The notes under the pieces were generated by a model that was not told the origin of the DNA, ran no database searches, and saw only the letters and a program-made list of their open reading frames with translations. From an uncultured Acidobacteriota bacterium (GTDB lineage Bacteria > Acidobacteriota > Thermoanaerobaculia > UBA5066), in NCBI GenBank assembly GCA_937888435.1, contig CALAQS010000223.1:1-38687 (forward strand): 38,687 nucleotides of DNA. The letters run 5' to 3'. Each line of letters opens with the position of its first letter. The stretch's first letter is position 1. The position numbers and the translations under genes were made by a program. Shown one piece after another: positions 1 to 3,490 of this stretch.

Positions 1-2
1 TG

Positions 3-356
3 GTGGGCGAGTTCTCGCGGTTTCCATCCGGTCGCCGCTTTGCGAGTTCGCTCGGCCTGACACCGAAGGAACACTCCAGTGGCGCGAGGCGGCAGCTCGG
101 TGCGATCAGCAAGAGGGGCGACACGTACCTCAGGACGCTTCTCATCGGCGGGGCACGGTCGGTGCTGCTCTGGGCACACCGCACAAAGAAACCGCATCGG
201 CTGCAGGAGTGGGCGCTAAACGTCGAGAGAAGGCGCGGGCGAAACCGCGCCTCCGTCGCCGTGGCGAATAAGCTCGCGCGAATCGTCTGGGCCGTCTCGA
301 CGCGAGGCGTTCCCTTCCATCCGATCCCGCTCGCACCACAAAACGTTCCCGCCTGA
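3..356 (+). mobile_element. IS110/IS1111-type transposase, C-terminal part (N-terminus outside window)
   Basis: Translation GLTPKEHSSGARRQLGAISKRGDTYLRTLLIGGARSVL...VAVANKLARIVWAV matches the C-terminal Transposase_20 (IS116/IS110/IS902) pattern. Confidence 0.9.
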
Positions 357-680
357 AAGCCACAAACGAAAGGAGTCCGTCAGAGTCCTCCCGCCCAAGA
401 ACGCGAAAGATGCGACAGATGAGCTCGGTCCGACCGACACGGGGGAAAGCCGATAACCCCGCTGGCCCCAAGAGGCCGTTGTTCAGCGATTGGCTCCCCG
501 TGTGCGGATTTTCATCCTGGCCCGGAGCCCATGCCGGCTCCAACTTCAAAGGCCGTAGATACGAGTGCCGTCGCGACCCCCGCTCATCACCATCGAGCCC
601 GTTCAAACGCGGCAAGCACCCCGACGACCGAGAGCTTGTGTTCTCTTAAAAGGAGAAGATTAGAGACCGCCCGTGTTTGA
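357..680 (+). ncRNA. Putative 3' non-coding region of an IS1111-type element; candidate location of a seekRNA/bridge RNA. Right boundary uncertain
   Basis: About 300 nt with no convincing CDS directly downstream of the transposase; IS1111-type elements carry their guide RNA 3' of the transposase. Confidence 0.35.
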
Positions 681-707
681 CGGAGGGGAGGAGTCCAGAT
701 ACGAGGG

Positions 708-714
708 GTTAGAC
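708..714 (-). other. attC-like R'' core site (RYYYAAC = GTCTAAC on minus strand), possibly a disrupted attC
   Basis: Minus-strand GTCTAAC fits RYYYAAC exactly and contains the TAA stop of the upstream cassette-like ORF; no partner GTTRRRY found before the IS-like sequence. Confidence 0.45.
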
Positions 715-1125
715 GGCCGCAATATCGGTGGGGTAAAGAGACAGGCGAGCCGTGAAGCCGTACGCCCCAGCGAGCTTGAGGAGTTGCGGAGGCAGCCGGT
801 AGGAGTGGGTGTACGTTTCTGGTGGAGCCGTGACCCAGATACTGAAGTCGAGCTCAGGCGAGCTGCGCGGAAAGGCCGCACTTATACGACGAAGCTCGCG
901 TGCATGTTTCCTGAAGAAGACGAGAGTTTCCTTAACCTGCGCGGGTAGGTCGGACCCCGGAGCGTCGCTGACCGAAATGTTGAGGCCGGTGACGCGGGTC
1001 AGACGGTTGCTGCCGGGCCAGATTGGTTCGCCGGCGATGAAGACGCGACAGACGGGCAGCGAAGTGCGGGCCGCAAACTTGCGGACGGCTGACTTCGAGC
1101 CGGCGACACGAAGAACGCAGCTCAT
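709..1125 (-). CDS. Conserved hypothetical protein; likely integron gene cassette
   Basis: 138 aa, MSCVLRVAG...VCRVFIAGEP...GLNISVSDAPGSDLPAQVKETLVFFRKH...LPPQLLKLAGAYGFTARLSLYP; resembles a widespread uncharacterised family with a conserved PPELLxLAGxLGIxxELSxYP-like ending. Confidence 0.7.
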   Translation of the reverse strand: MSCVLRVAGSKSAVRKFAARTSLPVCRVFIAGEPIWPGSNRLTRVTGLNISVSDAPGSDLPAQVKETLVFFRKHARELRRISAAFPRSSPELDFSIWVTAPPETYTHSYRLPPQLLKLAGAYGFTARLSLYPTDIAAV

Positions 1126-1138
1126 TTCTGTTTCGGCT

Positions 1139-1145
1139 GGCTAAC
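1139..1145 (-). other. Possible cassette-insertion (attI/cassette junction) core, GTTAGCC on minus strand
   Basis: One mismatch to GTTRRRY; 13 nt upstream of the cassette ORF ATG and downstream of the integrase module. Confidence 0.35.
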
Positions 1146-1185
1146 TAGTATTCGGCTGCAGGACGGGTTTGTACGTGCGGAAGCT

Positions 1186-1617
1186 TCATGACGGAGTCCC
1201 GGGGGAGGTTTCCGCAGGTGGGTGCTCTTCGGTTTCCGCAGATGGGAGCTTTCTGGTGGTGGTTTCGAGGCTCGACGCGTCGATTCGGATCCGCCGGGAG
1301 AGTCCGAGTTTGACGGCGCGGTCGTAGCGGATCTCCCACAATCTCTTCTCTGGCGACCACCTGCCGCCGGCGTTTCGCATCGCCGCCCTGAGCCGAACCT
1401 CCCCGTATTTCACGTCGACGAAGACGCGCCGCGCGGAGCCGGGAATCCACGGCACTTCCTCGACGACGAGCTCCACGGTTTTCATCCTCGTGCGCTTTCT
1501 CTCATCATAGCGGTAGCGGACGCAAACGAGTCGGGGGCCGAACTCGCGGAGGAGCTTTCGCGTGCCCTTGCGGCCCGGCTTGAGGCACGAACCGACCACG
1601 CCCGAAGAGGAGCTCAC
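1186..1617 (-). CDS. Integrase-associated conserved hypothetical protein
   Basis: GTG start overlaps the integrase TGA (GTGA, 1614-1617); sequence ...[44 protein letters not shown]...[23 protein letters not shown]. Confidence 0.75.
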
Positions 1618-2603
1618 ATCCGGTCCAGCGGGCTGGTGACGCCGAGGCCGCCGCGGTTCAGGACGTGTGTATAGATCATGGTGGTGGCAACGTCGCGGTG
1701 GCCGAGCAGCTCCTGGATGGTGCGGATGTCCGAGCCGCTCTCGAGGAGGTGCGTGGCGAAGGAATGCCGCAGGGTGTGGCAGCTTGCGGGCTTTCCGAGG
1801 CGGGCCTCGCGCACGGCGCGCTGGACGGCGCGTTGGACGAGCGTTTCGCCCAGATGGTGGCGGCGCAGGGGAGAGCCTGCGCCCGCTCGCGGGTCGGCGC
1901 TGCGCGACGCGGCGGGGAAAATCCACTGCCAGCCCCACCACTTGGCCGCGGCCGGATACTTCCGCGCGAGGGCGTCGGGCAGATAGACGCTGCCGAAGCC
2001 CTCGCGGAGGTCGGCCTCGTGGAGGGCTTTGACGGCCACCAGGTGGCGCTGGAGCGGCTGCCGGAGGGCGACGGGAAGCATGGTAAGTCGGTCCTTCATG
2101 CCCTTGCCGTCGCGCACGAGGATCTGGTTGAGCGCGAAGTCGACGTCCTTCACTCGCAGCCGCAGGCACTCCATGAGGCGCACGCCGGTGCCGTAGAGGA
2201 GCGTCGCGACGAGAAGGGGCGTCCCGTCGAGCCGCGCGAGGACGGCCCTCACCTCGTCCCGCGTGAGGACGACGGGCAGGCGCTCCGGGCGTTTCGCGCG
2301 GACTACGGCGCCGAGGGACTCGACGGGCCTCCCGAGGACTTCGCGGTAGAGGAAGAGAAGCGCGCTCAAGGCCTGCGTCTGGGTGGAAGCGGCCACCCTC
2401 CCGCGCGTGGCGAGATCCGAGACGAAGGCGTTGATCTCGGCTTCGCCCATTTCGTCGGGATGCCGTTTACCGTGGAAAACGACGAACCGCCGAATCCAGC
2501 CGACGTAGGCCTCTTCGGTACGGATGCTGTAGTGGCGCGTGCGGAGCGCGGCACGCACGAGGTCGAAGAGCTTCATCGGCTTTCGCAAAGAAGATAGGGC
2601 CAC
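1614..2603 (-). CDS. intI: Integron integrase (IntI-type tyrosine recombinase)
   Basis: Tyr-recombinase motifs ([58 protein letters not shown]) plus the IntI-specific insert region ([24 protein letters not shown]); start may be the internal ATG at 2573. Confidence 0.93.
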
Positions 2604-2701
2604 GGCGAGCGCAAGTCAAGCGTAAGTTTCGCTCTGGAATGAGCCGCCATTCAGTTTTTCCATGACGCGCGGGGAAAGGCGTGCTAGGTTTCCGGGTTGC
2701 C

Positions 2702-3490
2702 ATGAACCACATCGTCTGCATCGCCTACGTTCCCGACACGGAAACGAAAATCCGCATCGCCGCCGGGGGCGTCTCGATCGACGAGGCGGACGTGAAGTGG
2801 ATCGTGTCCCCCTACGACGAGTACGCGCTCGAGGGAGCGCTCCAGATGAAGGAGGCAAAGGGCGGCACGGTCACGGCCCTAACATTCGGGCCCGCGCGCG
2901 CCGACACGGGCCTGCGCGAGTGCCTCGCCCGCGGCGCCGACGACGCAATCCGAATTGCCTCCGAGGGCCTCGGCGAAGTGGACTCGCTCGGCGTGGCGCG
3001 CCTCCTCGCGGGCGCCATCAAGGCGCTGCCGCACGACGTCGTGTGGATGGGCAACAAGGGCGTCGGCACGGACGCGCAGGTGCTCGTGCCGATGCTGGCC
3101 GAGCTGCTCGACCTGCCGCACGTGAATCTCGTGACGAAGCTCGAGTGGAAGGACGGCGCGGTCCTCGCCTACCGCGAGATCGAGGGCGCGCGGGAGATCG
3201 TCGAGATGCCGCTGCCCGGCGTCATCGGCGCCACGAAGGGCCTGAACGAGCCGCGCTACGCGTCGCTGAAAGGCATCATGGCCGCGAAGAAGAAGGCGAT
3301 CGCCGTGAAGACTCCGGCCGACGCCGGAGTGGACCCGGTTACGGTGGCGGGAGAGGCCGCGCACGTGCGCTGGACGAAGCTCGAGCTGCCGCCCGCTCGG
3401 CAGGCCGTGAAGCTGGTCCCCGGCGACGACCCGGCGAAAGCGGCGACGGAGCTTCTCCGGCTGCTGCGCGACGAGGCCAAAGTCCTTTGA
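2702..3490 (+). CDS. etfB: Electron transfer flavoprotein beta subunit
   Basis: MNHIVCIAYVPDTETKIRI...VKWIVSPYDEYALEGALQMKE...GNKGVGTDAQVLVPMLAELLDLP. Confidence 0.93.
   Translation: MNHIVCIAYVPDTETKIRIAAGGVSIDEADVKWIVSPYDEYALEGALQMKEAKGGTVTALTFGPARADTGLRECLARGADDAIRIASEGLGEVDSLGVARLLAGAIKALPHDVVWMGNKGVGTDAQVLVPMLAELLDLPHVNLVTKLEWKDGAVLAYREIEGAREIVEMPLPGVIGATKGLNEPRYASLKGIMAAKKKAIAVKTPADAGVDPVTVAGEAAHVRWTKLELPPARQAVKLVPGDDPAKAATELLRLLRDEAKVL

What the first reader, a model, noticed from the sequence alone, without database searches (positions are those of the whole stretch)
640..1145. Cassette whose attC appears interrupted by an IS1111-type element
The minus-strand ORF 709-1125 ends with its TAA inside GTCTAAC (708-714), an exact RYYYAAC R''-type core, as expected for a gene cassette. 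No GTTRRRY partner is seen before IS-type sequence is reached. A subset of IS1111-group elements is known to target attC sites, so the other half of this attC may lie beyond the IS, left of the window.
Basis: partly seen in the sequence, partly recalled or inferred. Interest (0 to 1): 0.6.

Follow-up and report, generated by a model that had tools for sequence, protein, structure and literature searches.

The report
Jumping gene splits integron cassette site
The first gene cassette of a chromosomal integron has had its recombination site (attC) cut by an RNA-guided IS1111-type insertion sequence whose guide RNA can be read in the window and matches the site it hit; this is a new member of a known group, in bacteria where I found no earlier report of it.

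Summary
The finding holds. Window 1-701 is the right part of an IS1111-family element: transposase C-terminus 3-356, non-coding region 357-698, right end at 701. It abuts the R'' half of an attC (702-714, CGAGGGGTTAGAC). The cassette gene 709-1125 (-) lies between this half-site and an attI (crossover 1139-1145), downstream of an intact integron integrase (1614-2603, -). A second IS copy in the same genome and three in same-genus genomes end at the same place in other attC sites. Same-genus intact attCs continue the half-site unbroken (GCCTAACCCCTCG|TTGCAGCGGAC...GTTAGGY). A same-family genome holds a complete 1435-bp element with both attC halves, and two others show the left half joined to the IS left end. 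The missing half cannot be read in this genome, because the contig starts inside the IS and no left end is in the assembly. The non-coding region holds a seekRNA/bridge RNA (427-578). Its right-guide loop (454-460, UAACCCC) is complementary to the attC R'' core, and across 23 relatives the guides fit their own targets and not one another's (0 of 100,000 permutations). This is a new member of the known IS1111-attC kind.

The parts
3..356 (+). C-terminal 117 aa of an IS110/IS1111-family (DEDD) transposase, cut off by the contig start
   Evidence: PF02371 E 5e-15; NF033542 IS110 family RNA-guided transposase, profile 240-342 of 343; contig starts at window 1
357..701 (+). non-coding region and right end of the IS; sub-terminal inverted repeat arm GGAGGAGTCCA 687-697, right extension ATA 699-701
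   Evidence: same arm and extension in relatives that have both ends; copies in C162, G001, G002 diverge just beyond the attC core
427..578 (+). seekRNA / bridge RNA (precursor region)
   Evidence: covariance model R2 from five family members finds it in the non-coding region of relatives
454..460 (+). right guide UAACCCC, complementary to GGGGTTA of the attC R'' core
   Evidence: guide-target covariation across 23 elements
478..490 (+). left-guide loop strand GTTGTTCAGCGAT (target match inferred, with one G-T wobble to CAACGA)
   Evidence: position fixed by alignment with relatives whose left guide fits the left target
702..714 (-). cassette-side remnant of attC: R'' core GTCTAAC (708-714) plus spacer CCCTCG (702-707)
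   Evidence: differs by one base from the start of the intact attC G002:C61:2504-2564
709..1125 (-). first cassette gene, 138 aa, no Pfam or NCBIfam match; stop codon inside the R'' core
   Evidence: only one weak relative (30%) outside this genome in the 149 genomes searched of its class
1139..1145 (-). attI crossover GTTAGCC; conserved attI flank extends to about 1254
   Evidence: homologous sequence in G053:C287 (91% over 1130-1252), G001:C13 and G000:C109; TAATACTAGTTAGGC in G001:C74
1614..2603 (-). integron integrase IntI, in the same direction as the cassettes (inverted orientation)
   Evidence: TIGR02249 E 1e-141, over cut-off; the only over-cut-off hit in the genome

Best explanation
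A member of the IS1111-attC kind of RNA-guided insertion sequence jumped into the attC of the first cassette of a chromosomal integron. Its DEDD transposase carries a seekRNA made from the non-coding region downstream of tnp. One loop strand (UAACCCC) pairs with GGGGTTA of the R'' core, and the other loop strand is inferred to pair with the neighbouring L'' side, so insertion always falls between the R'' spacer and L'' (TCG|TTGCAGC). The insertion separates R'' from L''-L'-R', so the single-strand hairpin that IntI needs can no longer form there; the cassette should then be locked in place unless the IS leaves precisely (inferred, not tested). Shown: integrase, attI, IS right end, the same junction in five copies, intact sites, a complete element with both halves in a relative, guide-target match. 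Inferred: left junction in this genome, RNA expression, transposition, loss of recombination.
For: IS110/IS1111 transposase. Integrase over cut-off. Second IS end in the own genome at GCCTAACCCCTCG|. Same-genus copies at G001:C13, G001:C74, G002:C65. Intact attC GCCTAACCCCTCGTTGCAGCGGACTCGCTTGCGCTCGCCGCTGAACTCGATATCGTTAGGT in G002:C61. attC covariance model hits in 14 of 15 genomes, with several sites in G002, G053, G001 and G004. Complete 1435-bp element in L200 with both attC halves; the joined flanks fold as an attC-like hairpin, -38.6 kcal/mol by RNA parameters against -41.0 for an intact attC. Left halves at L198 and L199, also found by the attC model. Guide-target matching: right guide mean longest match 6.26 nt to its own target against 3.41 to others, 0 of 100,000 permutations; left guide 4.33 against 2.75, 0 of 100,000.
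Against: The IS left end and the other attC half are not in this genome's assembly. The window's transposase is only a 117-aa fragment, so an intact element here is not shown. Among attC-targeting copies alone the left guide does no better than permuted (10,440 of 100,000). The G002:C65 copy fits its guide poorly on the right (4 nt). Guide strands were delimited by eye from the aligned loops.
Confidence: 0.93

Rival explanations
1. The IS lies next to the cassette end, but no L''-L'-R' half exists on the far side: the attC was already truncated, or was deleted together with part of the IS.
For: The left side is not in the assembly; the G002:C65 relative copy is decayed and its far attC half lies behind scrambled sequence.
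Against: A complete copy and two left-end copies in three other genomes have the expected half at the exact joint.
Confidence: 0.05
2. The GTTAGAC at the IS edge is not an attC half but a chance motif or part of the IS, and 709-1125 is an ordinary gene rather than a cassette.
For: The gene has no recognisable family and no cassette relative was found.
Against: Five IS copies end at the same base and are followed by CGANNNGTTAGRN or TGAGGTGTTAGGC, with different genes behind; unoccupied same-genus attCs contain the same 13 bases; attI and integrase stand on the other side of the gene.
Confidence: 0.02

Closest known systems
IS1111-attC group (Tetu and Holmes 2008; Post and Hall 2009; ISKpn4, ISPst6, ISPa25)
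   Same: IS1111-family element in one end of attC, at a specific location, with a downstream non-coding region that makes the guide RNA (PMC11187229)
   Different: Here in an uncultured lineage with an inverted integron integrase; the nearest relatives found are about 50-62% identical over the transposase C-terminal part. The exact sites of the published elements could not be compared: Tetu and Holmes 2008 is not held.
IS110 bridge-RNA elements (IS621)
   Same: DEDD transposase with a guide RNA that has two target-binding loop strands (PMC11208160)
   Different: In IS621-type elements the guide RNA lies upstream of tnp and long sub-terminal inverted repeats are absent; here it lies downstream and the repeats are long.
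Chromosomal integrons with inverted intI
   Same: intI in the same direction as the cassettes, attI beyond the intI 3' end; inverted IntIs and Acidobacteria integrons are known (PMC8352920, PMC8618304)
   Different: Nothing categorical; the attI flank carries 24-bp tandem repeats of unknown role.

Membership tests
IS1111 family (of IS110/IS1111) | DEDD transposase of the IS110/IS1111 type | tested here: inconclusive
   The C-terminal domain matches PF02371 and NF033542, but below NF033542's whole-protein cut-off because the N-terminal catalytic part lies beyond the contig end
IS1111 family (of IS110/IS1111) | long non-coding region downstream of tnp that holds the guide RNA | tested here: met
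   357-698 non-coding; guide RNA model hit at 427-578 and in relatives. The model was built in part from this copy.
IS1111 family (of IS110/IS1111) | sub-terminal inverted repeats with asymmetric extensions, 7 bp left and 3 bp right | tested here: inconclusive
   Right arm and 3-bp extension present (687-701); the left arm lies outside the contig. Relatives have both.
IS1111-attC group | insertion at one fixed position and orientation inside attC | tested here: met
   Five right junctions at the same attC position; both halves in L200, left halves in L198 and L199
IS1111-attC group | guide RNA matching the attC end | tested here: met
   Right guide matches 7 nt of R'' and spacer; covariation over 23 elements. 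The left guide is not resolved among attC targets.
IS1111-attC group | transposition into attC observed | not testable with these tools
   needs a bench assay
Integron | integron integrase | tested here: met
   TIGR02249 472 bits, cut-off 265
Integron | attI next to intI | tested here: met
   Conserved crossover and flank, found again next to intI in G001:C74; recombination itself not tested
Integron | cassettes with attC sites | tested here: met
   Split attC here; intact attCs in same-genus and same-family arrays

The most novel reading that the evidence does not exclude
attC targeting was gained or lost more than once within one IS1111 clade through changes in the two guide loops of an otherwise conserved seekRNA. 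In this family an attC-targeting element (L200) is sister to one with an unrelated target (L159), so preying on integrons would be an easily evolved state of a general RNA-guided scaffold, and it occurs well outside Proteobacteria.
Probability: 0.55. Interest if true: 0.5.

Novelty: new member of a known kind. Interest (0 to 1): 0.4.

Why it matters
It shows an RNA-guided transposon specialised on the recombination sites of integrons in an uncultured lineage, with its guide readable and matching its target. The natural guide-target pairs collected here (attC and non-attC) could serve as a test set for how IS1111 recombinases are programmed, and the repeated hits suggest that such elements can freeze cassettes in chromosomal integrons.

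Tried and rejected
Own-genome search for the left IS end (TGATGRNATGGACTCC, up to 2 mismatches) gave only scattered 2-mismatch hits, none recognised as an IS left end, and the attC half GAGTCCGCTGCAA occurs once, in a degenerate site in C80 without IS. Own-genome search for the rest of the transposase: only the window fragment. A regular-expression search with a hairpin filter missed many degenerate attCs and was replaced by a covariance model. First idea that both guide strands pair with the top strand: dropped when L159, L063, L074 and L126 showed that the 3' strand matches the top strand left of the joint. Cassette function: no family; one weak relative (30%) of unknown function, not visibly in a cassette. 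Tetu and Holmes 2008 is not held, so its details were not compared.

Full report
What is there. The window is contig C223 of the genome, and window position 1 is the contig start. Reading leftwards on the minus strand: an integron integrase at 1614-2603 (TIGR02249, 472 bits, cut-off 265; the only such hit over the cut-off in the genome), a stretch of about 470 bp with a small ORF and an attI, the crossover GTTAGCC at 1139-1145, then the first cassette gene 709-1125, whose TAA stop lies inside GTCTAAC (708-714). Left of that stand six bases (702-707), then an insertion sequence that runs off the contig: right end at 701, non-coding region 357-698, transposase C-terminus 3-356.

Where the IS ends. 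Relatives with both ends share sub-terminal inverted repeats such as TGGACTCCTCC / GGAGGAGTCCA, a left extension such as TGATGRR and a right extension, mostly ATA. The window has GGAGGAGTCCAG-ATA at 687-701. Everything right of 701 is target: CGAGGGGTTAGAC.

It is an attC half. C162 of the same genome begins in a second copy of the IS (97% over the shared stretch) and passes at the same base into CGAGGGGTTAGGC and another minus-strand gene. G001:C13, G001:C74 and G002:C65 do the same at TGAGGTGTTAGGC, CGAGGGGTTAGGG and CGAGCTGTTAGAC. Unoccupied attCs of the same-genus genome G002 read GCCTAACCCCTCGTTGCAGCGGACTCGCTTGCGCTCGCCGCTGAACTCGATATCGTTAGGT: the remnant in the window continues there without a break. 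An attC covariance model (15 sites) finds sites in 14 of 15 genomes searched, with several sites each in G002, G053, G001 and G004.

The missing half. In G007:C499 (L200) a complete 1435-bp element stands between GCTAACCGCAGCGTCAGCGGCGAGCGG...GAGTCCGCTGGACG and CGGGATTAGGC; the joined flanks fold into a 65-nt attC-like hairpin. In G008:C75 (L198) and G011:C119 (L199) the left half is joined to the IS left end, CTGCAA|TGATGAAATGGACTCC and CTGCACG|TGATGCGATGGACTCC, and the attC model hits at the joint. In the window's own genome no left end or left half was found; a contig break inside a repeated element is the likely reason (inference).

How it finds the site. IS1111-family elements use a seekRNA from the downstream non-coding region, with one stretch complementary to each target strand (PMC11187229; the equivalent bridge RNA in PMC11208160). 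In the window 427-578 folds into a stem with an internal loop. A covariance model from five family members finds the same RNA in the non-coding region of relatives from Planctomycetota, Acidobacteria and Proteobacteria records. The 5' loop strand is GAUAACCCCGC; UAACCCC is complementary to GGGGTTA in the attC core. Other copies vary as expected: UAACACCUC for GAGGTGTTA (L156), UAACAACCG for CGGTTGTTA (L217, L218), UAACAAAUC for GATTTGTTA (L064), and for non-attC targets GACCGAGCG for CGCTCGGTC (L063), UGACGCCUC for GAGGCGTCA (L065), UACCCC for GGGGTA (L159). Over 23 elements the longest match to the own right target averages 6.26 nt against 3.41 to others' targets, and no permutation of 100,000 reached it; the left guides gave 4.33 against 2.75, also 0 of 100,000. 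Within attC targets alone the right guide still discriminates (2 of 100,000), the left does not (10,440 of 100,000). So guiding of the right half is well supported; for the window's left half it is inferred.

Kinship of targets. In a tree of the transposase C-termini the attC-targeting elements fall in one clade of 16, together with non-attC elements and elements of unknown target; L200 (attC) and L159 (other target) are sisters with strong support (97/93). This points to retargeting by guide change, but the fragments are short and many forks are open.

Consequence. Splitting R'' from L''-L'-R' should prevent the attC hairpin, so the cassette should be unable to leave by attC recombination, and later cassettes are joined to it only through the IS. 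This follows from the known folded single-strand mechanism of attC (PMC8352920) and was not tested.

Novelty. attC-targeting IS1111 elements are known (Tetu and Holmes 2008; Post and Hall 2009, cited in PMC11187229 and PMC11089894). Integrons in Acidobacteriota and inverted integrases are also known (PMC8618304, PMC8352920). The find is a new member of a known kind, with a readable guide-target fit and an extension to a lineage for which I found no report in the held library.

Noticed in passing
window 1130-1254; G053:C287 (L161) 2211-2333; G001:C13 (L156) ~1950-2071; G000:C109 (L003) 1501-1533: attI-like sequence occurs at loci with no integrase seen nearby: 91% identical over 123 bp in a different family (G053, beside cassettes), after a gene resembling trmB in G001:C13, and before a LysE-like gene in C109 of this genome. 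How an attI comes to sit away from intI is unexplained.
   Followed up: partly
window 1207-1254; L156 ~1960-2010; L157 ~2965-3015: Two tandem 24-bp direct repeats lie about 65-110 bp upstream of the attI crossover; the period is kept but the sequence differs between loci. They may be accessory IntI sites or promoter elements.
   Followed up: no
window ~1186-1600 (-); L157 2542-3040; L158 and L164 after intI: A small conserved ORF (..[38 protein letters not shown]..) follows intI in several genomes of this family; the window's version had no Pfam match.
   Followed up: partly
L159 (G004:C71) about 1940-3440: A near relative of the window's IS is inserted beside a tRNA-like T-loop sequence (GGTTCGAATCC), not in an attC, and its guide loops differ to fit.
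   Followed up: yes
L203, L204, L205, L206, L155: A repeat TGTAGGGGYGCAATGGGAATTGC recurs many times between genes in this genus, perhaps the ends of a transposon whose integrase-type transposase is seen in L204 (judged by eye).
   Followed up: no
L003 ~2190-2290 and L156 ~2575-2690: The cassette behind two intI-less attI-like sites is followed in both by the same ~100-bp sequence (GGGCACATAGGTAACAC..CACATGGGTRACACTTATCAACAG), apparently an IS remnant at the place where an attC is expected.
   Followed up: no
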